Positions 1 through 38,434 of a stretch of DNA of 38,434 nt are shown here, piece by piece. A program made the translations under genes and the position numbers. The notes below the pieces were generated by a model. That model did not search any database. It worked only from the letters and a program-made list of their open reading frames with translations, and was not told the origin of the DNA. The stretch is from Cyanobacteria bacterium FACHB-471. GTDB taxonomy: Bacteria > Cyanobacteriota > Cyanobacteriia > Elainellales > Elainellaceae. The DNA lies in the NCBI GenBank assembly GCA_014695345.1, contig JACJOC010000015.1, forward strand, positions 1-38,434, given 5' to 3'. Each line of letters starts with the position of its first letter. The first letter of the stretch is position 1.

Positions 1-113
1 ACTCCTCAGCTAGATCCTCTCTGGTGCGATGATGGTTTGGTTCTAGAAGGCGCAGGTAACGATTTCTGGCGATCGCCCAGCTTCACGATCGAGATGGAGA
101 CAGGAACAGGCAA
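1..113. repeat. Terminal redundancy, left copy (identical to 38322-38434)
   Basis: The 113 bases at the start match the last 113 bases exactly, with the res reading frame continuous through the overlap. This is how an assembler reports a circular molecule. The unique circle would be 38,321 bp. A real 113-bp direct repeat or terminally redundant linear DNA is possible but less likely, because the repeat lies inside one open gene. Confidence 0.93.
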
Positions 114-2805
114 AACCTACGTCTACCTCAGAACCATCTATGAGCTACGCAAAACCTATGGCTTCAGCAAGTTCATTATTGTCGTTCCCAGCGTTGCTAT
201 TTACGAAGGAGTAATCAAATCCTTCCAGATCATGCAAAGCCACTTCCGATCGGTCTACAACAACGAAGTGGTCAATCTGGTTCCCTATGATGGAGCGCAA
301 ATCAGCAGGGTGCGATCGTTTGCGACATCTAGCTTTGCTGAAATTATGGTGATGACTGATGCTGCATTCAACAAAATCACCAACAACTTATATAAGCCGA
401 GTGAGAAGTTACCGGGGGAATTGCTTCCTTACCAGTACATCCAGGAAACCCGCCCAATCGTCATCCTAGATGAACCTCAGAGTATTGATACAACTGAGAA
501 AGCGAAATCTGCGATTCGGACTCTGCATCCACTCTTCACGTTGCGGTACAGTGCAACACATCGTTTCAGTCCCAACTTAGTTTACCGCCTCACTCCAGTT
601 GAAGCATACCGTCAGAATCTAGTGAAGAAGATTCAAGTTGTTGGCTTAACAGAGCTAGATAACCTCAATCAATCCCCACTAGCTCTAGAATCTGTAGCAC
701 AAAATCCTTTTGTTGCTAAAGTCAAAACTCTAGTTCTAGAGCGAGGGACGGCTAAAGAAACAACAGTGACACTTAAGCAGGGGGATAACCTTTACAACAA
801 AACCCACCGTGAAGAGCATCTAAGTGGCTATATCGTTGAAGAAATCAACGTGACAAAGGGCAGCGAGTTCCTGCAATTTGAAAATGGGTTGCGGATCTCT
901 CTAAGAGGAGCCTGTCCGTCTCGTCCTGAAATCTTCCGTGCCCAGATCGAGGAAACGATCAAGCAGCATATGAAGACCCAGGAAGCCCTGCATTCCCAGG
1001 GAATTAAGGTGTTATCTCTATTCTTCATCGATCGCGTCGCTAACTACGCCTCCGAGACTGGATTCATTCGCACTGCCTTTGATGAAGCTTTCAATCGAAT
1101 TAAACGGCAGCATCCTCTGTTTGAAGACCTTGAAGCCACAGAAGTGCGCGAAGGCTACTTTGCTAAAAACAGAACTCGCACTGGGGATGAAGAGGCGATC
1201 GACACATCTAGCCGTAATCAAGCAGAGCGAGAGGCAGAAAAGGCAGCATTCAACTTGATTATGAGGGATAAAGAGCAATTGTTATCTTTCAATGGTTCCA
1301 GAGCCTCTGTATCGTTTATCTTTGCTCACTCTGCCCTGAAGGAAGGTTGGGATAATCCCAATGTGTTCCAGATTTGTACTTTGAATCAAACAACCTCTGA
1401 CATTAAGAAACGGCAGGAGATTGGACGTGGATTACGTCTTTGTGTGAATCAAGACGGGGAGCGTGTATTTGATGAAGATGTTAATGTGTTGACAGTAGTT
1501 GCAAATGAGAGTTATGAAACGTATGCGGCTACCTTGCAACAAGAGTATTTAGAAACTGGTGAAGAATCACCTCCAAAGCCCAAGCGTCCTAAAGAGGCAC
1601 ATACAGAGCGTAACGACTCACTGTTCAACAGCGCGGAATTTCAAGAATTCTGGTCTAAGCTTTGCCAGCAAACCTCCTATAACGTTCAGATTGACACAGA
1701 AGCTGTCATTGAGGAATGTGTAACACTGCTAAATGGTGCAATGTTCCCTGAACCAAAAATAATTTTGACGAGGGGACGGTTTGTGCTAACGGAATTTACA
1801 GTTTCGCTAGATTCTGTTCAAGGTAATAAAGCAAAAGTTTCAGTTGAAGTTCGAGATTCAGACGGTAATACAGAACAGAGCGGAAGATTGTTTAGTATTC
1901 CTCCCCTTTACACAATAAAGGCACGAGATAACTTAGCTAAAGTTTGTAAGGATGAGCGGTTGAGAGATTATACGGTTTTGGAAGTTATCGAAGATGGAGA
2001 TAACTCATGCATTCAATTCACTAACCATGAAGAACTGACTAAATATCGACAAATTCACTTCTGCACTGAGAAGGGTCAAAAACCTGATGAACAAGCAGTT
2101 CGGACGTTGAGTGATACTTATCCTATCTTCAATTTAATCGATCGCACTGCCAAGGAGACAACCCTAACTCGTCCAACCATTAACCGGATCTTCCAGGGAA
2201 TGCGCGATGATAAAAAATCAGCATTATTTAAAAACCCAGAAGGTTTTGCAGGAGTATTCATTTCAACCATTAAAGAAGCTGTTGCTGAACATATTGTGCG
2301 TAGATTAGAGTTTACGGTTTCCTCTAACAGAGCTTCTCATGAGGTAGAAAAACTATTTCCGCCACAAAAGGCATTCCCCCAGAAGGAGCTAATCGCTGCT
2401 GGAGAACAAGGACTTTATGACAAGGTGCAAATTGATTCTGGTGTAGAGGAGCGGTTTGTTGAGCATCGCCTCAAGACTGACTCTGATAAGGTAATTGGTT
2501 ACTTTAAGTTCCCGCCAGCTTTTAAAGTTTCCCTGCCTAAAATTGTTGGAAACTATAACCCAGACTGGGGAATTTTGAGACAGAGCGAGGATGGCAAGCA
2601 GGTTCTACAACTGGTTAGAGAAACAAAGAGTGCTAGGGGGTCCCGAAATCTTGATCAACTACCTTCTCCTCGAGAGAGGTGGAAAATCGAGTGTGCAGAG
2701 AAGCACTTCAAAGTAATTGGCATTGACTACCGTCCCACAAGCGATGAGGATTCTTCTTGGTGGACTAGCAAGGATAACCCTGTTCAAAATTCACTGCTAG
2801 CGTAA
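1..2805 (+). CDS. res: Type III restriction enzyme Res subunit, main part (starts at 38106 across the circular join)
   Basis: ATP-dependent translocase/endonuclease of a type III R-M system; it acts with Mod on unmodified DNA. Numbering on the joined 1006-residue protein: Walker A TGTGKT at 106-111, DEAD-like box DEPQ at 229-232, then SATHR (motif III), a region reading KEGWDNPNVFQ, and the arginine-finger motif QEIGRGLRL. The C-terminal endonuclease carries a PD-(D/E)XK pattern: PDW with D927, then ETK with E946 and K948. All key motifs are present, so the enzyme looks intact. A TTG at 37 could be mistaken for the start, but the frame is open upstream through the join to the ATG at 38106. 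It is the last gene of the operon that begins at 32468. It contains HIP1 octamers, unlike mod. Confidence 0.95.
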   Translation, partial: TPQLDPLWCDDGLVLEGAGNDFWRSPSFTIEMETGTGKTYVYLRTIYELRKTYGFSKFIIVVPSVAIYEGVIKSFQIMQSHFRSVYNNEVVNLVPYDGAQISRVRSFATSSFAEIMVMTDAAFNKITNNLYKPSEKLPGELLPYQYIQETRPIVILDEPQSIDTTEKAKSAIRTLHPLFTLRYSATHRFSPNLVYRLTPVEAYRQNLVKKIQVVGLTELDNLNQSPLALESVAQNPFVAKVKTLVLERGTAKETTVTLKQGDNLYNKTHREEHLSGYIVEEINVTKGSEFLQFENGLRISLRGACPSRPEIFRAQIEETIKQHMKTQEALHSQGIKVLSLFFIDRVANYASETGFIRTAFDEAFNRIKRQHPLFEDLEATEVREGYFAKNRTRTGDEEAIDTSSRNQAEREAEKAAFNLIMRDKEQLLSFNGSRASVSFIFAHSALKEGWDNPNVFQICTLNQTTSDIKKRQEIGRGLRLCVNQDGERVFDEDVNVLTVVANESYETYAATLQQEYLETGEESPPKPKRPKEAHTERNDSLFNSAEFQEFWSKLCQQTSYNVQIDTEAVIEECVTLLNGAMFPEPKIILTRGRFVLTEFTVSLDSVQGNKAKVSVEVRDSDGNTEQSGRLFSIPPLYTIKARDNLAKVCKDERLRDYTVLEVIEDGDNSCIQFTNHEELTKYRQIHFCTEKGQKPDEQAVRTLSDTYPIFNLIDRTAKETTLTRPTINRIFQGMRDDKKSALFKNPEGFAGVFISTIKEAVAEHIVRRLEFTVSSNRASHEVEKLFPPQKAFPQKELIAAGEQGLYDKVQIDSGVEERFVEHRLKTDSDKVIGYFKFPPAFKVSLPKIVGNYNPDWGILRQSEDGKQVLQLVRETKSARGSRNLDQLPSPRERWKIECAEKHFKVIGIDYRPTSDEDSSWWTSKDNPVQNSLLA

Positions 2806-26061: not shown

Positions 26062-26071
26062 GGCAATTGCC

Positions 26072-26401: not shown

Positions 26402-27367
26402 ATGGCAACAGGGATCGCCACCAGGAGCAAACATACGCGCCTGGTCAGCTTTGAAAACTCGAATAGCTGGATTAAGCGCCACGACTCTGAGGGGACGCTG
26501 GTAATTCAGGCAGGCTACCGGGAAAACCCGACCGCCTATGCCCGGCACGATGAAGAGAACCCCATTGTGATCATTGATGGGCAGCTTCCCCGCTGGTATG
26601 GCGCTTTGGCTTGCCAGGGGCAGCACGTTCGGATTCATGGGCGCTCGAAGATTGAAACCGCTCGCGAGGCGTTCTCCGCCTGCCTGCGTCCATCCGATGA
26701 CGGCAGAGATCTAATCGTGGTGTCCTCTCACTGGGATGTTCGAGCTTTAGATTCCCTCAAAGCTGCTCTGGAAGGTCAATACAAAGTTATTCGCAATGGG
26801 GTTGAGATTCGCTGCGTCGTGACTCAAGTACTTCCCGTGTTGGAAGGAATGGGCACATACAACGCGCTTCAGCCGTCCCTCCGCCCTGGCTCAACCCTGC
26901 TGATTGAGCTTGGCTTTGGTACGGCTGAAGAATTCCTGATTGATGCCTCTGGCGAGATCGTTGACGGTCGCCCGGTCGATAACTTGGGCATCTACAACCT
27001 GGTGAATGCGATCGCCGATGACCCAGCGGTTCGGGCACTGGCAACGGATGCCAGTGGAACGATCAACATTTCGCTGATCTCCCGCTGTCTCCAGTGCGAC
27101 ACGCTCGGCAAGATTGATGAGCGCAACTGGCAAGCGATCAAAGCAAAGTACGTCGCCGAATACCTCAAAACCTTTCAGGGCTACATCAAGACCAATTACG
27201 CCGCCCAATCTCAGGCAATCACAAACATTGTTCTAACCGGTGGTGGTGCTGCATTGCTTAGCTCAATTCAGCCGAAAGTCGCGCAGGTTTTCACCATTCC
27301 AGATCGCCCTCAGACTGCATCTGTTAGGGGTTCTTACGAGCATCAGATGAGCCTGGTTGGGGTGTGA
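26402..27367 (+). CDS. parM-like: ParM/StbA-like actin-family plasmid segregation ATPase
   Basis: 321 residues from ATG 26402, preceded by CAGGAGAGAAGA; a longer frame from 26306 lacks a ribosome site. Actin-fold signatures: phosphate-2-like LLIELGFGTAEEFLID (about 168-183) and the adenosine motif NIVLTGGGAALL (about 280-291). The phosphate-1 position reads VSFENSNSW near residue 16, where actin-like proteins usually have Asp; here it is Glu. Such proteins form filaments that push plasmid copies apart with a ParR adaptor. It is first of a rightward operon that runs to 31501, with the ParR candidate one base away. Confidence 0.82.
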   Translation: MATGIATRSKHTRLVSFENSNSWIKRHDSEGTLVIQAGYRENPTAYARHDEENPIVIIDGQLPRWYGALACQGQHVRIHGRSKIETAREAFSACLRPSDDGRDLIVVSSHWDVRALDSLKAALEGQYKVIRNGVEIRCVVTQVLPVLEGMGTYNALQPSLRPGSTLLIELGFGTAEEFLIDASGEIVDGRPVDNLGIYNLVNAIADDPAVRALATDASGTINISLISRCLQCDTLGKIDERNWQAIKAKYVAEYLKTFQGYIKTNYAAQSQAITNIVLTGGGAALLSSIQPKVAQVFTIPDRPQTASVRGSYEHQMSLVGV

Positions 27368-27368
27368 A

Positions 27369-27641
27369 ATGGCTCAAAAATCCCGGTCGGCTCAGTTGAC
27401 AGCAACCGCTTGGGAGTACTGCCGGGTACTGGTTGATGCCGGAGAGTATTGCTCCATTGATGATGCAGTTTCTGATCTGATCATGCAGGCAAGACGGAGT
27501 ACGACTCATCCGCCGACCCCAAAAGTAATTCAACCCGCATCCACACAGCCAATTCCCATCAGTACTCCCCCAGTACTCGCCAGTACTGAGCAAAAGCCAG
27601 AGAACCCTATCCAGGCTTTAGCTGAACTCAGTTTTGATTAA
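27369..27641 (+). CDS. Small ParR-like adaptor candidate
   Basis: 90 residues from ATG 27369, one base after the actin gene stop. The N-terminal 45 residues (SAQLTATAWEYCRVLVDAGE, then YCSIDDAVSDLIMQAR) look like a small helical DNA-binding fold. The C-terminus is Pro/Thr/Ser-rich and ends ENPIQALAELSFD, a short hydrophobic-acidic tail of the type by which ParR contacts ParM filaments. Position and layout support a ParR role; sequence alone does not prove it. Confidence 0.65.
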   Translation: MAQKSRSAQLTATAWEYCRVLVDAGEYCSIDDAVSDLIMQARRSTTHPPTPKVIQPASTQPIPISTPPVLASTEQKPENPIQALAELSFD

Positions 27642-27668
27642 CATCAACCCCACATGACAGGAGGTCAT

Positions 27669-27926
27669 ATGCCATCTATTCGGCTCTCAGGAGATGTAGA
27701 GGCGATCGCCCAAACGGTTTCAGAGCAGAGAGGTTTAGGCAGTACCAGAACGGCAATAGAGGCAATCGTTCGCTGTTACTGGCAAGACTATTTAGGCGGG
27801 AAGCGTTCCTCTATCGAACCAGCAGCCCCTTCGCCAGCGGGCGGCTTTGCCGATACCGCAAGGGTCGCCCCTGCTGCTGAATCTGCACCTACCGATTTCC
27901 GGTTCACCGAACCCATCGAGCTATGA
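27669..27926 (+). CDS. Small ribbon-helix-helix-like protein
   Basis: 85 residues from ATG 27669, supported by AGGAGG seven bases upstream. MPSIRLSGDVEAIAQTVSEQ followed by STRTAIEAIVRCYWQDYL fits an RHH-type DNA-binding protein; the C-terminal half is Ala/Pro-rich and ends FRFTEPIEL. Its stop overlaps the next start (ATGA). It is a second DNA-binding protein in the operon, possibly the centromere binder instead of the gene before it. Confidence 0.65.
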   Translation: MPSIRLSGDVEAIAQTVSEQRGLGSTRTAIEAIVRCYWQDYLGGKRSSIEPAAPSPAGGFADTARVAPAAESAPTDFRFTEPIEL

Positions 27927-28150
27927 ACCAGCCACTCAAACTCATTGCCGCTCTATTCCTCCGAAACCTCAACCGCCAAGCCCCAATTGAACTGTTTGTC
28001 GCTGCGCTGCTGGCGCTGTTGATGGGTTTAGCACTGCCTTGGGTGTTCAAGCTGCTGGCAATTGCCATCTTCCCGGCGATGACCATCTGGTCGATTTTTC
28101 TACTGATGTTGGGGCTAACCAAACTGTTTCGAGAACTGCTCAACGATTAA
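27923..28150 (+). CDS. Small two-helix membrane protein
   Basis: 75 residues with two long hydrophobic segments (about 24-40 and 44-65: FVAALLALLMGLALPWVF and LLAIAIFPAMTIWSIFLLML) and a basic N-terminus (FLRNLNRQ). The ATGA overlap with the preceding gene indicates coupled translation. Not recognised. It is the first of three membrane proteins in the operon. Confidence 0.7.
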   Translation: MNQPLKLIAALFLRNLNRQAPIELFVAALLALLMGLALPWVFKLLAIAIFPAMTIWSIFLLMLGLTKLFRELLND

Positions 28151-28225
28151 CCAGCCGCCTCTCCACCACAGATCAACGGCTGGCAACTCCCACAAACACC
28201 TAAATTCATAGGAGATTCCTTCATC

Positions 28226-28732
28226 ATGGCTCACAAAGCAGAATTACTCGGATATCAAGGCGCTACAGGCGAGTTTTTTGACACGCTTCAGGAGCTTTAC
28301 GGCATAAGGCTGGAAGCTCTCAACGTAGATGAAAAGCTGCTCCTTTTAACTAGCATCTTTGCCTATCACCTCAATAGCACCGGCGAGACGATGGAGGATG
28401 TTTGGAAGCCAGATAGTAACAGCCCTCGCTCCATCGAGATATTCGGCATTTTGAAGGGGCTTGAGGAATTCGAGCCTTCTCGTCAGTTCGCCTTTGCTGA
28501 GGCGCTGCTGAACCAGGTTAAATCGTCCTACCGGCTGCACGAGCAATTCTTGAAGCAGCTGACAAAGGCAGGAGTCGAGGAAGAATTAGCGGCTCAGGTT
28601 GCTGCAATCCTTGCTAGTGGGGGCGATCGCACTGAAGCAGAGTGTGAACTAGTGAGTGAAGCCTGGGAGCAAGTTTTCAAAGTTGATGAGGGACTCGCTA
28701 AGCGGATTGAGCAGGCAATGGGGCAGGAGTAA
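28226..28732 (+). CDS. Soluble helical protein of unknown function
   Basis: 168 residues, preceded by TAGGAGATTCC. Acidic and almost entirely helix-forming, with no membrane segment. FDTLQELYGIRLEALNVDEK and EQVFKVDEGLAKRIEQAMGQ flank the protein. I do not recognise the family. It lies inside the actin/ATPase operon, with four bases to the next start. Confidence 0.7.
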   Translation: MAHKAELLGYQGATGEFFDTLQELYGIRLEALNVDEKLLLLTSIFAYHLNSTGETMEDVWKPDSNSPRSIEIFGILKGLEEFEPSRQFAFAEALLNQVKSSYRLHEQFLKQLTKAGVEEELAAQVAAILASGGDRTEAECELVSEAWEQVFKVDEGLAKRIEQAMGQE

Positions 28733-28736
28733 AGGC

Positions 28737-28883
28737 ATGACTTACCAGTTCTACGCCCGAATTAGTGCAGGATGCCTCGCTACCATCCTGCTCCTGATTG
28801 GGATTGCCTACGTCAAAACATCCCCAGTCGGTGACTTAATCCACGATCGCCTTGAAGCGGCAAGAGAGCGGCAAGATGGCTAA
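28737..28883 (+). CDS. Single-pass membrane peptide
   Basis: 48 residues from ATG 28737 after GGAGTAAAGGC; a longer frame from 28656 is not needed. One transmembrane helix (residues about 8-26, ISAGCLATILLLIGIAYV), then a charged tail (HDRLEAARERQDG). It overlaps the next gene by 8 bases. Not recognised. Confidence 0.6.
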   Translation: MTYQFYARISAGCLATILLLIGIAYVKTSPVGDLIHDRLEAARERQDG

Positions 28884-29628
28884 ATTTACAGCGAATAAAC
28901 CCGGTGGTTCTACCCCTTCTAGCCCGGCTAACACTGGGGGGAAGAGTGAGTTTGATCAGCCTGAATCAAAAGGGTGGGAAGGATTAGACGCTGCTTTAGA
29001 TGCCATGCACGATGTGCTTACCCTTCTCCCTCACATTTACCTGTGGGTGACCGGACGAGGGGCAGCGATTCTGTACGGGATTGCCACGATCTACTTTGTG
29101 TTTGTGTCGGCTGAAGGGTACTGGCAGGTGCTCGATCCAGGTGCCCCAAGCTTTGTTCTAAAACCTTACGGGGGTGATGATGCCAATCCTTTAGACATCA
29201 TTGTTGCTGCCCTTTCCATTAGCTTCTGGTTCTCATTCCTGTTTAGCGCTGTCATCAATGCCATTCAAGCGCGAGTGTTCAGAGGCATTGGTATCAATAT
29301 TGCGAAGCAGCGGCTGAAAGAGGTTGAGGGGGAAGTTCTACCCGACAAGCCTAAGAAGGCGATCGATATTGTCGGTGTCCGGTGGAAGCAATACAAGCGA
29401 GCCGGAATGCTGGAGATTCGCAAACAAGGCTTTGTGATTCTGTCTACCTACGCCGTTGACATCATCATGAGCTATCAAAACCATCCCTTCGGCTATTGGT
29501 TTGGAGTCACTATCTCTCGCCTGGTCTGGTTCATTCTGTCGGTTGTGGCGGCTGAGTTGGCAGGCTCTATGTTCTGGGACGCAGTGGAAGACTTTAACCG
29601 TACTCGCAGGACCAAGACCGCTGATTAA
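28876..29628 (+). CDS. Multi-pass membrane protein, unknown
   Basis: 250 residues from ATG 28876. A polar Gly/Ser/Pro N-terminus of about 30 residues is followed by hydrophobic segments near 63-79 (AAILYGIATIYFVFVSA), 108-128 (DIIVAALSISFWFSFLFSAV) and 215-235 (FGVTISRLVWFILSVVAAEL), with a basic loop between (KQRLKEVEGEVLPDKPKKAI). It could be a membrane platform for the downstream ATPase. No named family recognised. Confidence 0.75.
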   Translation: MAKFTANKPGGSTPSSPANTGGKSEFDQPESKGWEGLDAALDAMHDVLTLLPHIYLWVTGRGAAILYGIATIYFVFVSAEGYWQVLDPGAPSFVLKPYGGDDANPLDIIVAALSISFWFSFLFSAVINAIQARVFRGIGINIAKQRLKEVEGEVLPDKPKKAIDIVGVRWKQYKRAGMLEIRKQGFVILSTYAVDIIMSYQNHPFGYWFGVTISRLVWFILSVVAAELAGSMFWDAVEDFNRTRRTKTAD

Positions 29629-29689
29629 TTGATTTGTTGAACGGAGTGGGGAAACCCGCTCCTATTGATGCTTTTAGAGACTAACGCCG

Positions 29690-31501
29690 ATGAATTTTGA
29701 AGACTACTTACTTCAGGGGAAGATCTTAGACGCGCTGCGCTACCGGGTTGGAGTTTTGCAGCGCACCGCAGACAAAGAGCGTAGCAACTGTGATGGGGCA
29801 AGACTGGTTAGCTTAGGGGCGATCGCTATCTCCTTGCCGTTTGTGGCTCCGTTGCCCGGTGTGGGAGTGATGGCTGGCATTGCTGGGTTTAGCTACCTGG
29901 GCACGGTTTGGCGAGACTTTCAAACTTCTGGCAAGCTGTGCCTGCTGCCGGGAAGTCGAATCGGTGCAGGAGACATCCTGAGCATCTTTGGACTGGCAGG
30001 GGAGGAGGTATCCCCTAGAGAACAGCAGCTAATGAAGGTGATGGATTTTCTGCCCTATGAGCAGCGGGTTGAGTATGCCGTCCTGGTCGATGATGAACCG
30101 GCGATCGCTGACCTATTGAAGCGACTGCCAGCGCAAGATCGGCTTGCAGGCTACGCCTACATGGTGCGCCGAATGGCTTTAGGTGATGTCAAAGCGCTGG
30201 ACTTGGTTGAGGTGAAGGCGGCGATCGCGGCTGAACCAGTAGAGCCAACTGATTCAGTTCCACCTACCCAACTTCAGCCACCAAGCGCGGCTCTACCAGC
30301 GGTCGAAGGCAGCGCTACTCAGGCAGAGCCAAGCGATCTCGAAGAGATACCCGCAAGGGGTCGCCCTGCGATAAGTGCCCCATCCACTACTACCGAACTG
30401 CTACCAGCGGCACCACGAGGAAAGTCACCCATCAGCTACCTTATTGGCGATCGCCTGCGAACTTCGCTGATTGTTGCAGTTTCAGGAGGCGGCAAAGACT
30501 ACCTACTAGCCAATGCTTTAAGGTTTTTCTTGCCCAAGTATCCAGACTTCAAGGTGGTAGCAATGGACTGCAAGGATGACGAGAAGGAGTACGGCTATTT
30601 AGGGGATCTGCCCGCTGTCTCAGTGCATCGACTGAATGTGGCGATCGCCTCCGACGGAGAGGTGGTTGAATGGGTTGAGCGATGCTTGCAGGAGTTTGTC
30701 GGCATTACTGAAAAAGCCTTGCTTATCTGCAATGAAGGTACGTTGATTCGAGCCAAAAGCAAGCGCTACATCGACGTAATTGATGGACTGGTTAGCTCTG
30801 GTGACTCCCGCGAGAAATACGCCTGGGAAGCAGGGCAATCAGCTCACGCCGACGATCTAGGCATCAATGGTGCAGCTCGCTCTAGATTTCGCCCTTTGAT
30901 CATTGGACTGAAGGGGGAGGAGATGCAGGTAGAAGCCATCCTGCAAGCCAAGTTTGTGGCAGATTCCGCTCGTAATATGGACGACTTCAGAGCACAGATG
31001 ATGCGGTCTCCCGTTAACCGCGCCTGGTCGGACGGGCAAGCCTGGTATGCAATGCCAGAAATGGAGAATCACTGCGGGTATGACCGGGACACCCGACAGT
31101 TTCTGCAAAAGCTCGATTCTGTGCGTTCCCTAGAAAGTTGTTTAACGGCAGACGTAGGGGATGAATACCATCCTGAGCAATTTGATTTGAATGCCTCTGA
31201 AACTGATTTAGAAGTGTTGGAAAAGCTGTTTGATGAGGTGATTGGCAACGCTGAACTAGTCAATGAAGTCGCAACTGGAAGCAAGTCTAATGAGCTACCA
31301 GGTGGGGCAATTGCCATTCATGAATACGCACTTAGACAGCCTGATGAATGGGTGAAGGTACGGGACATTCAACGGGCAAGTCTATCAGCACTAAAAGGGT
31401 GTGTAGTAGAGCAGATCAGGGAGTTTATCTTACTACTTGAAAAGCATCATAAAGGTGATGCAGACGATGATAGCCCGACAGCTTACAAGCCCGTCAGATA
31501 G
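29690..31501 (+). CDS. Membrane-anchored P-loop ATPase, possible DNA-transfer or segregation motor
   Basis: 603 residues. A hydrophobic hairpin at about 39-73 (LVSLGAIAISLPFVAPLPGV onward) anchors the N-terminus. After a Pro/Ala-rich linker (about 185-245) comes an ATPase core: LIVAVSGGGKDYLL with K269, VVAMDCKDDEKEYGYL (like the DxK segment of VirD4/FtsK-type motors) and a Walker B-like KALLICNEG. The P-loop is atypical: Ala263 replaces the first Gly and Asp270 the usual Ser/Thr. A C-terminal helical domain ends the protein. It is the last gene of the actin operon, and its 3' end already contains two copies of the iteron motif. TraD/VirD4-like function is inference; no relaxase is present. 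Confidence 0.72.
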   Translation: MNFEDYLLQGKILDALRYRVGVLQRTADKERSNCDGARLVSLGAIAISLPFVAPLPGVGVMAGIAGFSYLGTVWRDFQTSGKLCLLPGSRIGAGDILSIFGLAGEEVSPREQQLMKVMDFLPYEQRVEYAVLVDDEPAIADLLKRLPAQDRLAGYAYMVRRMALGDVKALDLVEVKAAIAAEPVEPTDSVPPTQLQPPSAALPAVEGSATQAEPSDLEEIPARGRPAISAPSTTTELLPAAPRGKSPISYLIGDRLRTSLIVAVSGGGKDYLLANALRFFLPKYPDFKVVAMDCKDDEKEYGYLGDLPAVSVHRLNVAIASDGEVVEWVERCLQEFVGITEKALLICNEGTLIRAKSKRYIDVIDGLVSSGDSREKYAWEAGQSAHADDLGINGAARSRFRPLIIGLKGEEMQVEAILQAKFVADSARNMDDFRAQMMRSPVNRAWSDGQAWYAMPEMENHCGYDRDTRQFLQKLDSVRSLESCLTADVGDEYHPEQFDLNASETDLEVLEKLFDEVIGNAELVNEVATGSKSNELPGGAIAIHEYALRQPDEWVKVRDIQRASLSALKGCVVEQIREFILLLEKHHKGDADDDSPTAYKPVR

Positions 31502-31680
31502 TCCCAAAAAGAGCTCTAATCGACACCCGACACATTTTACCTGACACCCAACGCTTACCCGACAAATTGCTGAAGCCTTTGCTTGACAAACCCGACAAGC
31601 TACCCGACAGCTTTTTGCTACTGTCGGGTAGCCACCCGATACCCGACAGCACGCAACAGTCCACCCGACAACTTTTTGAG
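31473..31680. repeat. Iteron-like array of ACCCGACA
   Basis: Six exact direct copies start at 31525, 31557, 31590, 31602, 31641 and 31673. One inverted copy lies at 31622-31629. Near copies start at 31473, 31489, 31539 and 31634. Three of the steps are 32-33 bases, about three helical turns, so one face of the helix could be bound. The array lies directly after the ATPase gene and before an AT-rich stretch, as in iteron origins or centromeres. The 71-codon frame at 31567-31782 crosses it and a terminator, and is not called. Confidence 0.75.
31600..31631. other. Hairpin made from one direct and one inverted iteron
   Basis: CTACCCGACAG - 10-base loop - CTGTCGGGTAG, perfect 11-bp arms. The loop begins CTTTTT. 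It could extrude as a cruciform inside the array or end a leftward RNA. Confidence 0.6.
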
Positions 31681-31768
31681 CGGCACCCCACAGTGGTAAA
31701 AATAGAAAATCTCTTACTACAGAAGCAGAGGTTTCTGTTAGGAAAACACCCTTTCAATCTAATTGAAA

Positions 31769-31798
31769 GCCCCCAGTCCTAAAACTGGGGGCTTCTTT
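31769..31798 (+). terminator. Bidirectional Rho-independent terminator
   Basis: GCCCCCAG - 8-base loop - CTGGGGGC followed by TTCTTTT on the plus strand. On the minus strand the same stem is followed by TTTCAATT. It closes the actin/ATPase operon. Confidence 0.8.
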
Positions 31799-31947
31799 TA
31801 CCTCTTAGACCTCTGAATCATCTGACTCCCTAAACAGAAGACGGTGACAACCATAAACAAGGGTGTACTCCAGTCCGCTATCCCATAATGTTCACCTCCA
31901 GGAGACGGAGGTTGCCCTTCATTTCCTTTTGGTAGAACGAGAATCAC
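31798..31947 (-). CDS. Possible small membrane peptide
   Basis: A 49-residue leftward frame from GTG 31947: PKGNEGQPPSPGGEHYGIAD, then a hydrophobic stretch STPLFMVVTVFCLGSQMI and a basic end QRSKR. It stops exactly at the bidirectional terminator, which supports a real transcript. No strong ribosome site is visible at the GTG and I do not recognise it. Confidence 0.35.
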   Translation of the reverse strand: MILVLPKGNEGQPPSPGGEHYGIADWSTPLFMVVTVFCLGSQMIQRSKR

Positions 31948-31949
31948 AT

Positions 31950-32284
31950 AATCATCAGTCTTTTGAAGCTGTTATTCTTTGAATATTTTTTTCTTGTGTA
32001 TTTTTTCGTTTTTACACTTGAATTAAGATGTTCAATTAAGATGCCTACAGGTCAAACGCCCTTCAGCAAAATAAGCCTACCCCTCCTCTTTTTTCTCTCC
32101 GAAATCTTTATACTTTTTAAGTAACAAAAGCTACAACATAGCTTAGGCAATCCTTAGGACTCTTCAACCTTTCCTACCTATAGTCCAAATTCAGTCTAGT
32201 CAGAATTGGTGGCACTGTTTTACACGGATCTCCGCTCGACCTCAGCGGCCGCCTTGACGAAGGGGCTGGCGGAAGGTGACATCC
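31950..32284. other. AT-rich gene-free region beside the iteron array
   Basis: Runs of T (for example around 31985-32013) and two direct copies of AATTAAGATG at 32021-32030 and 32034-32043, 13 bases apart, are compatible with a DNA-unwinding region. AAGCT and AGCTT face each other near 32126-32142. No gene is seen; bases 32240-32284 are GC-rich. Confidence 0.4.
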
Positions 32285-32328
32285 AGCAATACTGTCCTTC
32301 AGCTGTCTGGAGGGCAGTATTGCTTTAT
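32285..32328 (+). terminator. Strong hairpin upstream of the defence operon
   Basis: AGCAATACTGTCCT (32285-32298) pairs with 32311-32324 at 13 of 14 positions (the other is G-T), and TTATT follows. It would insulate the defence operon from upstream transcription. Confidence 0.6.
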
Positions 32329-32341
32329 TCGTGGTGAGGGG

Positions 32342-32375
32342 CTGCTCCGCTAAGTCTAACTACATCCCTAATTGC
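32342..32375 (+). repeat. Dispersed repeat, copy E
   Basis: 31 of 34 bases match copy A (8421-8454), in the same orientation. It lies 92 bases before the HTH gene that opens the defence operon. Copies E and A bracket the whole block 32468 to 8253 around the circle. Confidence 0.75.
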
Positions 32376-32432
32376 ACCATCTTCATCATCTTTTTCAATT
32401 TGTGTTTCTTTTCTAAAGGTTATGGGAATTTT

Positions 32433-32462
32433 ATAGATATCACTCTACATAGGGTTATCTAT
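32433..32462. promoter_or_regulatory. Inverted repeat just upstream of the HTH gene, candidate operator
   Basis: ATAGATA (32433-32439) and TATCTAT (32456-32462) are perfect 7-bp arms, 16 bases apart, ending five bases before the HTH start. This position suits autoregulation by the HTH protein. Confidence 0.5.
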
Positions 32463-32467
32463 GAAAC

Positions 32468-32722
32468 ATGATAGATAGTGTGTTCTCTAAAGCTGTGATT
32501 TATCCGCAGGACAATGCAAATTTAATTTTGGAACTTCGCCAACGGTTTGGGTTAACTCAAGAACAGTTTGCTGCAAAGCTTGGGGTAACTTTCGCGACCG
32601 TTAATCGTTGGGAGAATCGACGCGCCAAACCCTCTCGCCTTGCTCTTCAATCTATTCGAGGTGTGCTTGAACAGATGGGAGAATCTGGACAGGATTTATT
32701 AACGAAGTACTTCTCCAACTGA
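32468..32722 (+). CDS. XRE-family HTH regulator of the defence operon
   Basis: 84 residues. The HTH core runs LRQRFGLTQEQFAAKLGVTF followed by TVNRWENRRAKPS (about 23-55), a typical Cro/CI-type fold as also found in HigA-like and R-M controller proteins. It is 42 bases before the helicase gene on the same strand. By position it would repress or time expression of the helicase, nuclease, Mod and Res. Confidence 0.88.
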   Translation: MIDSVFSKAVIYPQDNANLILELRQRFGLTQEQFAAKLGVTFATVNRWENRRAKPSRLALQSIRGVLEQMGESGQDLLTKYFSN

Positions 32723-32764
32723 TTAGGCAAAGACTGTACTAAATATATTCAAGAAGGAATTTGA

Positions 32765-35362
32765 ATGGCTTTAACTAGTCTAACCATTCAAGATCTTTGG
32801 GCTGCTATAAAACCTAAAAGATTTGAACCGACTGACAACCAGGAGAAAGCTATCCTTCATACTGAAGGGCCATTGTTTCTAACAGCTGGACCCGGTTCTG
32901 GAAAAACAAGAGTATTACTATGGCGGACGCTTAATCTCATTGTCTTTCATAACATTAAACCTGAAGAAATTTTCCTTAGCACCTTCACTGAAAAAGCTGC
33001 TTTTCAGCTCCAAGAGGGATTGAGATCACTCCTGGGACTTGTCACAAACATAACGGGGGTTCCTTATGACCTCTCTCACATGTATGTGGGAACAGTCCAT
33101 TCACTTTGCCAGCGGTTACTTACAGACCGAAGACTTTCAAATGGCGGACGCAGACCGATTAATCCAGCATTAAAGGATAGCTTAGAACAGTATTTTTATG
33201 TCTCCGATCGTCGCTACTGGTCGTCTGCTACTGCGGCGGTTGGTTTTCCTGCTGATGTAGATGAAGCAAACAAAGTTATCACTCAGTATCTCAATAAAAC
33301 TCCATCAAGCTCTAGACACGTTGCAGCTACACAATGCATTAGCTTGTTCAACCGTTTCTCAGAGGAGAGCGTTGATCCATCTGCAATTCGAGAGCGAACA
33401 GAGGATGAGACGCTGAAGGCTTTAATTGACCTTTACGACTACTACAAGCGATCGCTTACGCCTGAAACTGGTGTTCCTTTTATAGACTTTGCCTTGTTGC
33501 AACAGAAAGCCTTTGAGCGCCTGGAGCAGTGTCTTGCTTCTGAAACTGTTTTTAAGCACGTCATTATTGACGAGTATCAGGACACAAACACGATTCAAGA
33601 GCGGCTATTTTTCAAACTAGCAAAAGGACACAAAAATATTTGTGTGGTGGGAGATGATGATCAAGCACTGTATCGCTTCCGGGGTGCTACAGTCGAGAAT
33701 TTCGTTCAATTTCCAGAACGTTGTCAGCATTATCTTGAAACTGATGCAACACCTATTCCTTTAAATACGAACTATCGCTCCAGGCGCAAGATTGTTGAGT
33801 TTTACACCGACTTTATTTCCCGTTGCAACTGGAAGCGCGGTTCTGGTACGGGGCATTATCGAATTGCCGACAAGGACATTCAAGCCCATAGCCAGGATGA
33901 GCAGCCTTCGGTCATTGTTAGTACTGCGGGTAGCCCGGATAATGTATGTGCAGAAATTGCTGATCTGGTAAAGCGACTAGTTGATGAAAAGAAGGTTGAA
34001 GATCCCAACCAAATTGCATTTCTTTTCCCATCGCTTAAGAGTGCTCAGGTTGAGCGAATGCGGGCGGCACTGGAAGCGGTAGGGCTGCGTGTGTATGCAC
34101 CTAGAGCTGGGCGATTTCTTGAGGTAGAAGAAGCTATTTCTATCTTTGGTATTTACCTCAAGATTTTTGGGAAGCCCGATCGCGGTGATTTTAAGGGCAA
34201 TGACTACAACGAATTCCACAACTGGATGGAATCCTGTCTTCGAGATGCCGATCGCCTATTAAAAACTGATAAAACGCTAGCAACCTATGTTGAAGATCGA
34301 AAACGCGAGATTTCAACTGCTTTAAATGACTATCGCATTCTTGTAGAGGTTGCAGCCCGTCATCAATGGGACTTAAATCAGCCTTATGACATTGATTTGA
34401 TGATGCGATCGCTTCTCTCCGCTGGTGGACTATCGGAGACAGCAAAAAAGAATTTAAGCAATAGCTTCTTCGGACGGATTGCAAAGAAGCGGGCTGAGGA
34501 AGGACAGCCTTTCATGCTGAGCTATGTCATCACTCGAATGACTTCGATCGACTGGAGTGTGCTGGATTTGTTCTACCGCATCTGTGCCTTCGACCACTTC
34601 AGAGCAATGTTTAACTTGGCAGAGAAGGGGACTGATGAGGGACCTATCTGCAACCTGGGACTTATTACCCAGTATCTTGCTCGGTTTATTGATACCTACT
34701 CTGCCGTCATTAAAGCTCCCTTTCTCCTAGATGGAAAGTTTCGTAATACCTTCTTTATGAGATTCCTCTACAGCCTGTTTCGCTTGGGGGAGGCGGAATA
34801 TGAAGATGCCGATGATCCCTTTCCTAAAGGGCGTGTTCCTTTTCTAACAGTTCACCAATCAAAAGGATTGGAGTTTCCTGTTGTGGTACTGGGGAATCCT
34901 CGAAAGGACGATCGCGGACCTCAGCAGGTTGAAAAGATTGTGCGCCCGTTGCTCGATCGAGAAGGAGAGCCGTTAGACCGGATGTCACAGTTTGACATCA
35001 TGCGAATGTTTTATGTAGCACTCTCTAGGGCTAAAAACCTGCTTGTCATTGCGCACTATAGCGGTCGCGGACAATCTATCAGCGAACCCTTCAAAACCCT
35101 TCTCAATGGGCAGGTGGATCGCATTCCTAGTCTGAATCTAGACACATTACCAGCCGCGAAGGTAGAAGCAGATAATTTGACCAAGAACTACTCCTACACC
35201 AGCGACTATCTGCTTTATCAGAAGTGCCCAAGGCAGTACATGATTTTCCGAAAGTATGGGTTCGTTGCCTCTCGATCGCAGACGCAGTTTTTCGGGAATC
35301 TGGTTCATAAAACCATTGAAGACTTGCATCACTTGCTCATTGCCCGGAGAACTCAGCTATGA
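32765..35362 (+). CDS. UvrD/Rep-type superfamily 1 helicase carrying the start of a split RecB/AddB-like nuclease domain
   Basis: 865 residues. SF1A motifs: Q-motif TDNQEKAI (23-30), Walker A AGPGSGKT (41-48), IIDEYQDTN with D269/E270, GDDDQALYRFRGA (about 295-307), NYRSRRKI, TVHQSKGLEFPVVVLGNPR (about 695) and FYVALSRAKNLLVI (about 750). The last 60 residues (YTSDYLLYQKCPRQYMIF, then FGNLVHKTIEDLHHLL) are the opening of an AddB/AdnB-type nuclease domain: C821 would be the first Fe-S ligand and H848 the GxxxH histidine. The rest of that domain is in the next gene, which overlaps by ATGA. Start ATG 32765 follows AGAAGGAA. Probably a DNA-end-processing motor in a defence complex. Confidence 0.9.
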   Translation: MALTSLTIQDLWAAIKPKRFEPTDNQEKAILHTEGPLFLTAGPGSGKTRVLLWRTLNLIVFHNIKPEEIFLSTFTEKAAFQLQEGLRSLLGLVTNITGVPYDLSHMYVGTVHSLCQRLLTDRRLSNGGRRPINPALKDSLEQYFYVSDRRYWSSATAAVGFPADVDEANKVITQYLNKTPSSSRHVAATQCISLFNRFSEESVDPSAIRERTEDETLKALIDLYDYYKRSLTPETGVPFIDFALLQQKAFERLEQCLASETVFKHVIIDEYQDTNTIQERLFFKLAKGHKNICVVGDDDQALYRFRGATVENFVQFPERCQHYLETDATPIPLNTNYRSRRKIVEFYTDFISRCNWKRGSGTGHYRIADKDIQAHSQDEQPSVIVSTAGSPDNVCAEIADLVKRLVDEKKVEDPNQIAFLFPSLKSAQVERMRAALEAVGLRVYAPRAGRFLEVEEAISIFGIYLKIFGKPDRGDFKGNDYNEFHNWMESCLRDADRLLKTDKTLATYVEDRKREISTALNDYRILVEVAARHQWDLNQPYDIDLMMRSLLSAGGLSETAKKNLSNSFFGRIAKKRAEEGQPFMLSYVITRMTSIDWSVLDLFYRICAFDHFRAMFNLAEKGTDEGPICNLGLITQYLARFIDTYSAVIKAPFLLDGKFRNTFFMRFLYSLFRLGEAEYEDADDPFPKGRVPFLTVHQSKGLEFPVVVLGNPRKDDRGPQQVEKIVRPLLDREGEPLDRMSQFDIMRMFYVALSRAKNLLVIAHYSGRGQSISEPFKTLLNGQVDRIPSLNLDTLPAAKVEADNLTKNYSYTSDYLLYQKCPRQYMIFRKYGFVASRSQTQFFGNLVHKTIEDLHHLLIARRTQL

Positions 35363-36198
35363 CAGAGGCAGATATTGAAGCTCAAATTCGAGAAATGTTT
35401 GAGGAGAACTACGAACTTCTCCAGGCTGAAGGGGGCCATGCTTTAACCCAAGATGGAAAAAATGCAGCCCTGCGCCAGGTGCTTCTCTATTGGCAGAAGA
35501 TGCGAGATGTGGCAGAGAATGTGACCGATACGGAGGTAAAGCTCAACCTACCGGATCAGATGACACCCAAGGGGCGGAAATATGGGATTGAGGGTGTTGT
35601 AGACATTATCCGCGAGGACGATCGAACGGTGATGTATGACATCAAAACCCATGATTATGACTATGTGAATAAAAACAAGGAGCTGTACGAGAAGCAGCTT
35701 AATGTATATGCCTATATCTGGCAGAGCTTGAGAGGGCAGGAACTTGACCAGACTGCGATCATTGCAACAGCCTTTCCGACGGCTGTTCAGGAAGCCCTTG
35801 ATAGAGATGATGAGCGACGGCTTGCCGCTGCTCTGGAGGAATGGAACTTACTGATTGATATTCCCTTTGACCAACTGCATGTAGGGCAGACGATCGCTGA
35901 TTTTGGGGCGGTTGTCGATGCGATCGAAGAAAACAAATTTGCTCCAGCCTCTGTGGAGAAGCTGAAAACGCGATTTGCAGCTAGAGGACGGGAACTGCTG
36001 TTTGCAACTCAGGTTTGTCGTAACTGCGATGCTCGGTTTTCTTGTTCGTCCTACCGAAATTATGTGGTGTCATCAGGTGGGCGATCGGATTCAACGTTTG
36101 CTCGGTACTTCCAAGAGTTTGGAAGTGATTCGGAACAAGAAGAATGGCTGACGGCAAATCTTGACGCAGCACCGTCACCAGAAGCTTTTGAAGTTTAA
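35359..36198 (+). CDS. PD-(D/E)XK nuclease, remainder of the split AddB/AdnB-like domain with Fe-S cysteines
   Basis: 279 residues. Core: GIEGVVDII with D82, VMYDIKTHDY with D94 and K96, EKQLNVYAYIW with Q113 and Y117: motifs II, III and IV of RecB-family nucleases. At the end, CRNCDARFSC gives C220, C223 and C229 in the Cx2Cx5C spacing of the AddB/Cas4/AdnAB iron-sulfur staple, whose fourth Cys is normally N-terminal. That fourth Cys and the motif I His lie in the preceding ORF (C821, H848). The ORFs differ by one reading frame and overlap by four bases, so the two chains must assemble, or ribosomes must slip, to give a full domain. Confidence 0.88.
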   Translation: MTEADIEAQIREMFEENYELLQAEGGHALTQDGKNAALRQVLLYWQKMRDVAENVTDTEVKLNLPDQMTPKGRKYGIEGVVDIIREDDRTVMYDIKTHDYDYVNKNKELYEKQLNVYAYIWQSLRGQELDQTAIIATAFPTAVQEALDRDDERRLAAALEEWNLLIDIPFDQLHVGQTIADFGAVVDAIEENKFAPASVEKLKTRFAARGRELLFATQVCRNCDARFSCSSYRNYVVSSGGRSDSTFARYFQEFGSDSEQEEWLTANLDAAPSPEAFEV

Positions 36199-36228
36199 CT
36201 AAGAACCCTGGAATTTGGAGAAGAGACA

Positions 36229-38091
36229 ATGGTAATTGCACCCCTACAGCGGAATTTTTCTTTAGACCAAGAACGGTTGGAACTCTTGAAGCAGATCGTT
36301 CCTGAAGTATTTGCAGACGGCAAGATTAATTGGGAGACGTTGAAGGAATCTTTGGGCGAGTACCCGGAGGAGGATGAGCCAGGAGTGGAGCATTTTGGGT
36401 TGAGTTGGGCTGGCAAACGGGAAGCTCGAAAGGTAGCTAGTCTTCCAACTAGGGGAACCCTTATACCTGTTCCAGGTAAGGGAATAGACGAAAAAACAAC
36501 CAGAAATATTTTCATCGAAGGCGATAACTTAGAAGTTCTAAAACTTCTACAAAAGAGCTATGCTGGGCGGATAAAAATGATTTATATTGATCCACCCTAC
36601 AACACAGGAAATGATTTTATCTACAATGATAGTTTCTCTGAATCTATAGATACTTATTTGAGTAGAACTGGACAGACAGATGATAGCGGAAAGCTTTTAA
36701 CTTCAAATCCTAAGGCAGGAGGAAGGTTTCATTCAAACTGGCTAAGTATGATGTATCCCCGCCTAAAATTAGCAAGAAATTTGCTACAGGATGACGGGTT
36801 GATTATTATTAGTATTTCTGATCATGAAGTTGCACACCTGAAGCTCCTACTCAATGAAATATTCGGAGAAGAATGTTTCTTGGCACAACTTGTTTGGAAG
36901 AGCCGACAATTTCCTGATTCAAGAGCAACAAGCCACATTTCTACAGATCATGAGTACATCTTGGTTTATTCAAAAGACTCTGATTGTAGCTTTAGGGGTG
37001 TTCAAAGGGATGAAAGTAAATTTAGTAATCCAGATAACGATCCAAGAGGTCCTTGGATGAGTAGAAGCTTACTAGGACTTGCAACTGTTGAGAAAAGACC
37101 CAATCTTCATTATGAAATGATAGATCCTGTCACTGGAGCTTCTTATATGCCTCCTGCTAATACTGGCTGGAGATATTCTAAAGAGAGGATGCATCAGTTG
37201 ATTAGGCAGGGGTATATTTTGTTCCCTAAAAAGGCGGATGGCAGACCAAGAGAGAAGAAATTTCGCTCTGATTTGGCAAATGAATTTATTTCCTTTCCAA
37301 CAATAATTGACAATATATTTACAGCTCAAGGTACAGCAGAGATAAGGGATTTGTTTGGCTTTGAGGCATTTGATTTTCCAAAACCTGCTGTGTTAATAAA
37401 AGCTTTGATAGAGCAAACTACTGGCAAAGAGGATTTGATTCTTGATTTTTTTGCTGGCTCTGGCACAACTGCACAAGCAGTTATGGAGTTGAATCTACAG
37501 GACGGTGGATCTAGAAAATACATTTGTGTACAATTACCTGAAGATCAATCAATTTCTAAAGAAGCAATTAAAAGAGGATACGAAAATATATCTGATTTAT
37601 CTAGAGAGCGCATTCGAGAAGTGGCTATAAGGATTAAAAAGAAATCAAAGGAAAATTTGGATTTTCATAACTCACAACAAGACCTGGGCTTCAGGGTATA
37701 TAATCTTCACAGATCCAATTTCAAGGCTTGGTCAAATCACCTTGGACAAAATTTTGAAGAAATTCAGGCTTCATTTTTAGATTTTGAAGACTCATTGGTC
37801 AATGGATGGAAGGAACAAGACGTAATTGTAGAGATTCTCCTTCATGAAGGCTTTCCTTTGGATAGCGGAATGAACTATCAGAACCATTTTCCTAAGAATA
37901 AAGTTTTAGTAGTTGAATCTACCTCTGTAGCACATCAATTATTCATCTGTCTGGATGAATCAATTGCTGATGAAACCACTCAACAACTCCAACAGCTTGA
38001 GCATGATGATGTCTTTATTTGCCTGGATATTGCATTAACGGATCAAGCCAAGATGCGGCTCTCCGACGTTTGCAACATTAAGACGATCTAG
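36229..38091 (+). CDS. mod: Type III DNA methyltransferase Mod subunit (beta class)
   Basis: 620 residues. DPPYNTGNDF at 121-130 (motif IV) precedes DFFAGSGTT at 406-414 (motif I), the beta-class order typical of type III Mod enzymes, which methylate adenine N6 and carry target recognition between the two motifs. The central region (about 200-380) is the putative target-recognition domain. GGAGAAGAGAC precedes the ATG. The stop is 14 bases before res. The second half is visibly more AT-rich than the 5' end and I see no HIP1 octamer in the gene, which suggests exchange of the recognition region. Confidence 0.95.
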   Translation: MVIAPLQRNFSLDQERLELLKQIVPEVFADGKINWETLKESLGEYPEEDEPGVEHFGLSWAGKREARKVASLPTRGTLIPVPGKGIDEKTTRNIFIEGDNLEVLKLLQKSYAGRIKMIYIDPPYNTGNDFIYNDSFSESIDTYLSRTGQTDDSGKLLTSNPKAGGRFHSNWLSMMYPRLKLARNLLQDDGLIIISISDHEVAHLKLLLNEIFGEECFLAQLVWKSRQFPDSRATSHISTDHEYILVYSKDSDCSFRGVQRDESKFSNPDNDPRGPWMSRSLLGLATVEKRPNLHYEMIDPVTGASYMPPANTGWRYSKERMHQLIRQGYILFPKKADGRPREKKFRSDLANEFISFPTIIDNIFTAQGTAEIRDLFGFEAFDFPKPAVLIKALIEQTTGKEDLILDFFAGSGTTAQAVMELNLQDGGSRKYICVQLPEDQSISKEAIKRGYENISDLSRERIREVAIRIKKKSKENLDFHNSQQDLGFRVYNLHRSNFKAWSNHLGQNFEEIQASFLDFEDSLVNGWKEQDVIVEILLHEGFPLDSGMNYQNHFPKNKVLVVESTSVAHQLFICLDESIADETTQQLQQLEHDDVFICLDIALTDQAKMRLSDVCNIKTI

Positions 38092-38105
38092 GGAGAGCAA
38101 ATATC

Positions 38106-38434
38106 ATGGCTAAGAATCTCAAGCTTAAATTTGACCCCGATCAAGATTATCAACTCAAGGCAATTCAGAGCGTAGTTCAACTTTTTGAAGGATTGCCCAA
38201 GTACGAACGAAGTCTGCTGACCCGTGAAGACGAGATTGTTTCAAATCTTCCGCCTGATGAAATTCTCTCTGAATCATGGCTGGAAGAGAATCTGTTGGCT
38301 GTTCAGAGGCAAAACGATCTTACTCCTCAGCTAGATCCTCTCTGGTGCGATGATGGTTTGGTTCTAGAAGGCGCAGGTAACGATTTCTGGCGATCGCCCA
38401 GCTTCACGATCGAGATGGAGACAGGAACAGGCAA
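38106..38434 (+). CDS. res: Type III restriction enzyme Res subunit, 5' part (continues at base 1)
   Basis: ATG at 38106, 14 bases after the mod stop codon, opens a frame that runs off the end of the window and continues in the same frame at base 1, because 38322-38434 duplicates 1-113. Joined, the protein is about 1006 residues (72 codons from 38106-38321 plus 934 from 1-2805), the usual size for type III Res. This part holds the N-terminal region before the helicase core and, in the duplicated tail, the start of the Walker A region. The tight spacing to mod indicates co-transcription and a Mod-Res complex. The cut is an artefact of linearising a circle, not a truncation. Confidence 0.93.
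   Translation, partial: MAKNLKLKFDPDQDYQLKAIQSVVQLFEGLPKYERSLLTREDEIVSNLPPDEILSESWLEENLLAVQRQNDLTPQLDPLWCDDGLVLEGAGNDFWRSPSFTIEMETGTG
38322..38434. repeat. Terminal redundancy, right copy (identical to 1-113)
   Basis: Exact repeat of bases 1-113, in the same res reading frame; see 1-113. Confidence 0.93.

What the first reader, a model, noticed from the sequence alone, without database searches (positions are those of the whole stretch)
32468..38434. Five-gene operon joining a helicase-nuclease pair to a type III R-M system
HTH, UvrD helicase, RecB/AddB-like nuclease, Mod and Res are on one strand with gaps of 42, -4, 30 and 14 bases, wrapping through the origin to 2805. Seen: gene order, intact catalytic motifs in all four enzymes, and a palindromic operator candidate at 32433-32462. 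Known: type III R-M normally consists of mod and res alone, and AddAB/AdnAB-type helicase-nucleases process DNA ends. Inference: the helicase-nuclease degrades DNA opened by Res, making a two-stage restriction system under one regulator. I do not know a named defence system with this composition.
Basis: partly seen in the sequence, partly recalled or inferred. Interest (0 to 1): 0.85.

Follow-up and report, generated by a model that had tools for sequence, protein, structure and literature searches.

The report
Restriction system with split helicase-nuclease
A plasmid, probably of a cyanobacterium, carries a DNA-cutting defence system joined to a helicase and nuclease that look able to chew up the cut DNA; this kind of partnership is already in print, but here the nuclease is divided between two genes, and that division is kept in distant bacteria.

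Summary
HTH, UvrD helicase, PD-(D/E)XK nuclease, Mod and Res lie on one strand with the stated gaps; Res crosses the ends of a circular contig. Mod and Res match EcoP15I. The composition is not new: Hudaiberdiev 2017 reported UvrD-Cas4-like fusions beside type III mod/res.

Cys1 and GxxxH end the first ORF; the active site and Cys2-4 are in the second. The break sits at the same place in four more loci from two phyla, in one clade, under purifying selection. That clade is less tied to type III: one locus has complete type I R-M, one type I remnants, two none. A nuclease-only relative sits between an AAA+ gene and EcoP15I-like mod/res.

Most likely: degradation of DNA after restriction; untested. 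A new variant of a known kind.

The parts
32285..32324 (+). terminator-like stem upstream of the operon
   Evidence: 18 pairs, 8 G-C
32429..32466 (.). imperfect inverted repeat, operator candidate
   Evidence: 16-nt arms, 81% complementary; 6 of 300 shuffles reach the score
32468..32722 (+). HTH regulator, 84 aa
   Evidence: PF01381 9.4e-12
32765..35362 (+). UvrD-type SF1 helicase, 865 aa, ending with the first piece of the nuclease domain (C821, GxxxH at 844-848)
   Evidence: PF00580 1.5e-56, PDDEXK_1 profile 7-50; alignments
35359..36198 (+). second piece of the PD-(D/E)XK nuclease, 279 aa (D82, D94-x-K96, C220, C223, C229)
   Evidence: PF12705 1.9e-08; model
36229..38091 (+). Mod, type III methyltransferase, 620 aa
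   Evidence: PF01555; EcoP15I Mod 4zcf_A 1.4e-62
38106..38434 (+). Res, N-terminal part; the last 113 bases of the window repeat bases 1-113
1..2805 (+). Res, remainder (1006 aa in all), SF2 motor and C-terminal PD-(D/E)XK
   Evidence: PF04851, PF19778; EcoP15I Res 4zcf_C 8.4e-48

Best explanation
A type III restriction-modification system of the EcoP15I class (Mod methylates, Mod-Res cuts unmethylated DNA) that carries its own end-processing enzyme. Shown by sequence: the operon, the motifs, EcoP15I homology, and that the UvrD ORF and the nuclease ORF are two pieces of a protein that other relatives make as one chain, the break being conserved in a clade. Inferred: the two chains assemble into one helicase-nuclease, the first giving the motor, Cys1 and the GxxxH helix, the second the D/DxK active site and Cys2-4, held by an Fe-S cluster. 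Inferred: after Mod-Res cuts incoming DNA, this enzyme loads on the ends, unwinds and degrades the fragments, so that the cut phage or plasmid cannot be religated or repaired; the ATGA overlap makes the chains in step. Inferred: the HTH protein represses or times the operon.
For: Operon and motifs. Mod/Res homologous to EcoP15I. Helicase inside a 100 SH-aLRT clade with the fused UvrD-PDDEXK proteins (quick trees). Fused relatives stand before mod and res: 14 of 22 PLSDB records have one Res family downstream and 2 more other mod/res; 16 of 18 IMG/VR loci over 800 bits. Different R-M lineages are used: window Mod is 24-30% identical to the Vibrio-group Mods, and window Res has no significant blastp match to their Res. 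Same break in W, L225, L226, L233, L234; ATGA in three of five, GGAG before the ATG in four of five; nuclease dN/dS 0.049 (L233/L234), pN 0.10 against pS 0.80 (L225/L226). Nuclease piece models as a PD-(D/E)XK core, with the Cys2-4 stretch under pLDDT 50; best solved fold AddAB. On fused relative L098 the break maps to the loop 750-757 between two helices.
Against: No experiment and no complex prediction. Of the five split loci with a helicase only the window has type III; L233 has complete type I R-M, L234 type I remnants, L225 and L226 no R-M found in the stretch. Fused relatives without mod/res: Annamia L010, Fusobacterium L200, Natronococcus L015, L110 and L017 with an RNase T gene, and L232 with at most a weak Res-like neighbour. 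Six plasmid relatives of the window Mod, opened out of 809 records, have no helicase-nuclease within 6 kb. A different third gene 5' of mod was reported as not needed for methylation or for in vitro cleavage (Murray 2021).
Confidence: 0.5

Rival explanations
1. The helicase-nuclease is a second, independent defence layer (Gabija-like or DNA-end sensing) that shares the operon and regulator with the R-M system and acts when restriction is blocked or evaded, not on Res products.
For: Partners vary: types III and I, RNase T, or none; PADLOC models that match the motor are GajB and a reverse-transcriptase-associated helicase.
Against: Direct placement before mod/res in most fused loci and joining to different R-M lineages point to a shared pathway.
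Confidence: 0.22
2. It is a plasmid maintenance or repair enzyme: a RecB-like resection machine that repairs breaks, including those made by the plasmid's own Res on under-methylated DNA.
For: Fold and motor resemble AddAB and UvrD; R-M-free copies exist (L010, L225, L226).
Against: Association with mod/res is far more specific than with plasmid backbone genes, and occurs on phage and chromosomal contigs as well.
Confidence: 0.15
3. The two ORFs are joined by programmed frameshifting and make one chain as in relatives.
For: The second frame is open 13 codons upstream of its ATG, so a 43-nt overlap exists in which a -1 shift is possible.
Against: I saw no classic slippery heptamer in the overlap (reading only); a GGAG lies 9 nt before the ATG, and in L225 the stop comes 2 nt before the ATG.
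Confidence: 0.08
4. The split is decay: a frameshifted pseudogene of a fused helicase-nuclease.
For: Other members are broken (Geminocystis L198, Enterococcus pXD5 L203, Peribacillus L011, L234 helicase tail).
Against: Same break in five loci of one clade over two phyla, catalytic and cysteine residues kept, purifying selection.
Confidence: 0.03

Closest known systems
UvrD-Cas4-like (pfam12705) fusion beside type III mod/res (Hudaiberdiev et al. 2017, PMC5704561)
   Same: homologous SF1 helicase and Cas4/RecB-like nuclease placed before mod and res; HTH genes sometimes present
   Different: there one polypeptide; here two ATGA-coupled genes broken inside the nuclease domain; Mod/Res of another lineage than in most fused relatives seen here
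Type III R-M, EcoP15I class
   Same: Mod and Res homologous, motifs present
   Different: classically two genes; here two more enzyme genes and a regulator
Type III R-M with an extra ATPase gene 5' of mod (Murray et al. 2021, PMC8259958)
   Same: third gene immediately 5' of mod, found by the authors near such systems in more than 500 genomes
   Different: described as SF2-like and without PD-ExK; ours is SF1 with a nuclease. Whether the two genes are related was not tested here
AddAB / AdnAB / RecB
   Same: UvrD-type motor with a RecB-family nuclease; AddAB is among the best solved folds of both models
   Different: no second helicase-like subunit; NCBIfam cut-offs far from met
Gabija (GajB)
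   Same: UvrD-like helicase in a defence operon
   Different: no GajA found; GajB models match only the motor

Membership tests
Type III R-M (EcoP15I class) | Mod with DPPY before FxGxG, homologous to EcoP15I Mod | tested here: met
   4zcf_A 1.4e-62
Type III R-M (EcoP15I class) | Res with SF2 motor and C-terminal PD-(D/E)XK | tested here: met
   4zcf_C 8.4e-48; motifs
Type III R-M (EcoP15I class) | ATP-dependent cleavage that needs two inversely oriented asymmetric sites | not testable with these tools
   needs the enzyme
UvrD-Cas4-like + Mod + Res (2017) | helicase in the clade of the fused proteins | tested here: met
   100 SH-aLRT; quick trees with long-branch warnings; compared with fused proteins found here, not with the paper's own list
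UvrD-Cas4-like + Mod + Res (2017) | mod and res adjacent | tested here: met
UvrD-Cas4-like + Mod + Res (2017) | helicase and nuclease fused in one polypeptide | tested here: not met
   stop at 35360-35362, restart at 35359; same break in four relatives
AddAB / RecBCD | family model cut-offs; second helicase-like subunit | tested here: not met
   AddA 104.2 bits against 707.65, RecB 82.1 against 696.05; no second such subunit in the 26 distinct window ORFs scanned with Pfam
Cas4 of CRISPR adaptation | cas4 model cut-off and cas1/cas2 neighbours | tested here: not met
   23.9 bits against 65; no cas1/cas2 among the 26 ORFs scanned
Gabija | GajA next to GajB | tested here: not met
   no such neighbour among the ORFs scanned
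Fe-S RecB-family nuclease | four cysteines, one before and three after the catalytic core, binding a cluster | tested here: inconclusive
   cysteines present: C821 in the first ORF, C220/C223/C229 in the second, conserved; the cluster itself was not shown

The most novel reading that the evidence does not exclude
A helicase-nuclease whose single Fe-S nuclease domain is built in trans from two genes, one giving Cys1 and the GxxxH helix at the end of the motor, the other the active site and Cys2-4, and which serves as an exchangeable post-cleavage module for both type III and type I restriction systems; the catalytic piece can also be recruited next to another motor (AAA+ in L240) before EcoP15I-like mod/res.
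Probability: 0.35. Interest if true: 0.7.

Novelty: new variant of a known kind. Interest (0 to 1): 0.55.

Why it matters
Restriction enzymes cut phage DNA, and clearing the fragments is usually credited to host RecBCD-like enzymes (general knowledge). An R-M operon that brings its own end-degrading enzyme, joined to several mod/res lineages and to type I R-M, would make post-cleavage degradation a selectable part of restriction. The conserved break inside the nuclease domain gives a clean handle: the catalytic piece can be removed without touching the motor, and a nuclease that works only when two chains meet would be a built-in safety catch.

Tried and rejected
Rejected: decay of the nuclease gene. 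Set aside, not excluded: programmed -1 frameshift (no slippery heptamer seen by reading; ribosome-binding site before the second ATG). Rejected: AddAB, Gabija and Cas4 membership (and Pfam scans).

Led nowhere or against me: protein searches with the window nuclease found only the window itself in 292 genomes of the phylum and 36 of the family, which would have wrongly made the split unique; the profile searches found it. Later searches with the split-nuclease profile added no new locus in 9, 63 and 10 genomes. In PLSDB the L226 nuclease matched 7 records, all with the fused or Peribacillus-type gene, and the L233 nuclease none, so no second plasmid with the split type was found. IMG/VR gave one relative, L240, without UvrD. 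Megablast of window 20000-36200 against plasmids: no match. In some searches only two candidates per genome were scored, so those counts are lower bounds. The neighbour HMMs were built from the relatives themselves. Paper searches for a later named system: 33 and 44 none; others gave the two papers used and others that did not describe it as far as listings, abstracts and passages showed; 41 did not explain the PADLOC name TmtA. So 'no named system' rests on open-licence papers only.

Not done: test whether Murray's ATPase gene is related; a model of the two-chain complex; a bootstrapped tree.
Full report
Observation. The window's first and last 113 bases are identical, so the contig is best read as a circle of 38,321 bp, and Res is one frame of 1006 aa across the join. 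The genome has 7.15 Mb in 118 contigs and this contig is its C26. The host is probably a cyanobacterium: the 18 plasmid records that match the window's 603-aa protein (29690-31501) belong to eight genera (Tolypothrix, Nostoc, Aulosira, Trichormus, Calothrix, Microchaete, Fischerella, Scytonema) that I know as cyanobacteria. The genome gave one match to the Res nuclease family PF19778, this one (the control genomes gave 0 of 14).

What the genes are. Mod and Res match EcoP15I (1.4e-62 and 8.4e-48) and PADLOC type III models. The helicase carries UvrD motifs and the nuclease a PD-(D/E)XK core. PDDEXK_1 begins at the end of the helicase ORF (profile 7-50, 21.6 bits, just under the cut-off of 22) and goes on in the next ORF (59-246, 35 bits). 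Aligned plasmid relatives make a single protein of about 960 aa with the same order. In the window C821 and the GxxxH motif end the first chain; E59, D82, D94-x-K96 and three C-terminal cysteines are in the second.

Relatives with the fused protein. tblastn of the Vibrio fused protein against 72,556 plasmid records gave 22 at E <= 1e-60. In 14 of 22 a Res of one family (C-terminal TnsA-like domain) lies about one mod-length downstream by coordinates (Spirosoma has two more genes between); eight of the 14 were opened and show mod in between. Priestia and Peribacillus have other mod/res; a second Priestia record was not opened. Five of 22 have none: Annamia (intact), Geminocystis (gene in pieces), Nostoc (cut short beside an IS1380 transposase), Fusobacterium (beside a metallophosphatase and an AAA_23 ATPase) and Natronococcus. 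Conversely, of 21 records with that Res family, the 14 with at least 80% of it all have the helicase-nuclease; seven Enterococcus records hold 42-73%, and the one opened has no helicase-nuclease and lies beside IS1216.

In IMG/VR, of 18 loci over 800 bits among the best 80, 14 have Mod and Res of the common family, 2 (L098, L111) have RadC, a TmtA-like protein and other mod/res, 1 (L106) has a methylase gene close to the contig end, 1 (L110) an RNase T gene. L115 and L116 look like one sequence on two contigs. Five fused relatives of the window's class (L227-L231; L230 cut by the contig end, L231 in two ORFs) all have Mod genes or fragments next to or near them and four have Res pieces or genes; L232 from the other phylum has only a weak Res-like neighbour. 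A phage record has helicase-nuclease, a small gene, Mod and Res.

Mod and Res differ between loci. The Vibrio Mod is 51-54% identical to six others of its group; the window Mod is 24-30% identical to that group (homologous but distant), and the window Res has no significant blastp match to their Res. Six plasmid relatives of the window Mod, opened out of 809 records, have no helicase-nuclease within 6 kb; four of the six have another gene between mod and res. So the helicase-nuclease has been joined to different R-M lineages.

The split is real. Searches with the window nuclease alone found nothing else in 292 and 36 genomes. A profile search found helicase ORFs that end at the same place: G848 and G954 in the window's class (8 of 388 genomes matched, the window's own included) and G433 and G633 in the phylum of a Lachnospiraceae genome (5 of 398, that genome included). 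Each is followed by a 272-273-aa nuclease, 61-65% identical to the window's in the first two and 44% in the others. The ATG overlaps the stop as ATGA in the window, L226 and L233; in L225 it follows after 2 bases; the L234 helicase tail is frameshifted. GGAG precedes the ATG in four of five. The five form one clade with 100 SH-aLRT in a quick tree that warns of long branches elsewhere. Selection is purifying: nuclease dN/dS 0.049 for L233/L234; for L225/L226 synonymous sites are saturated, pN 0.10 and pS 0.80. In a count over five fused genes, 2.6% of 20,094 possible breaks would give a start within 2 nt of the stop with a 4-base or longer Shine-Dalgarno match. Six other loci with separate helicase and nuclease (L021, L112, L195-L197, L235) are split elsewhere, before a whole nuclease, and form another clade; the 2017 paper mentions unfused pairs, mostly in Clostridiales, and may mean these.

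Structure. The nuclease piece alone models as a PD-(D/E)XK core, pLDDT about 90 for most of residues 1-190 and under 50 for 215-255, which holds Cys2-4; a missing Cys1 partner would explain this, other causes are possible. AddAB is its best solved fold (4.4e-5, TM 0.35). In fused relative L098 (mean pLDDT 82.1) the break falls in the loop between helices 729-749 and 758-775; UvrD and AddA are the nearest solved folds.

Contexts of the split clade. Window: type III. L233: HerA-like and NurA-like genes, helicase, nuclease, HsdM, HsdS, HsdR on one strand. L234: pieces of HsdM, HsdS and HsdR domains in one ORF. L225: ParA-like gene downstream, PLD-domain gene upstream, a PLD-SNF2 helicase gene on the other strand, no R-M found. 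L226: similar layout, neighbours mostly not scanned against Pfam, no Mod/Res by my HMMs. L240 (IMG/VR): a nuclease with the same core but another N terminus and no UvrD, between an AAA+ ATPase and Mod (39%) and Res (43% to the window's). So the catalytic piece is seen beside EcoP15I-like mod/res twice, once without the helicase.

Mechanism. Most likely the enzyme degrades DNA after restriction. Shown: gene order, homology, motif conservation, the conserved split. Inferred: assembly of the two chains, the Fe-S cluster, loading on ends made by Res, regulation by the HTH protein. The 2017 paper (passages and section 8 read) proposed an ancillary role in defence through site-specific unwinding and cleavage. 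Murray 2021 (abstract, part 1 of the results, two sections) describes another extra gene, called SF2-like without PD-ExK, not needed for methylation and absent from the partially purified cutting enzyme: a warning that such genes may act outside cleavage.

Novelty. Helicase-nuclease plus mod plus res is in print since 2017. The break inside the nuclease domain, its clade and its type I partner I did not find in the papers searched (open-licence papers, mostly listings and passages). Hence a new variant of a known kind.

Noticed in passing
window 13107-17282 (-): 1391-aa protein with NACHT, HEAT repeats and a C-terminal TIR domain: an NLR-like defence candidate on the same plasmid.
   Followed up: no
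window 11660-12778 (+): 372-aa protein with a type I HsdR N-terminal domain; no motor domain matched.
   Followed up: no
window 4891-8253 (+): 1120-aa protein without a Pfam match in a low-GC stretch; one plasmid relative, in Pseudanabaena sp. PCC 7367 (27%).
   Followed up: partly
window 8506-9072 (-), 10427-11071 (+), 20560-22164 (+), 25480-26061 (-): Phage-integrase family, ParA-like, serine recombinase and Uma2 genes.
   Followed up: no
L098:9207-22199 and L111:9252-21935: RadC, fused UvrD-nuclease, a SACS/NO VEIN protein (PADLOC TmtA; nearly full length in L111), mod and res, with an HTH-M78 gene in L098: another enlarged type III-like operon.
   Followed up: partly
L110:4368-8616 and L017:8262-12490: Fused UvrD-nuclease followed by an RNase T/DEDDh exonuclease gene instead of mod/res.
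   Followed up: partly
L240:7343-15102: AAA+ ATPase, window-type nuclease piece without UvrD, Mod and Res in one run.
   Followed up: partly
L233:3660-17122: HerA-like and NurA-like genes, split UvrD-nuclease and HsdM-HsdS-HsdR on one strand: two end-processing machines beside a type I system.
   Followed up: partly
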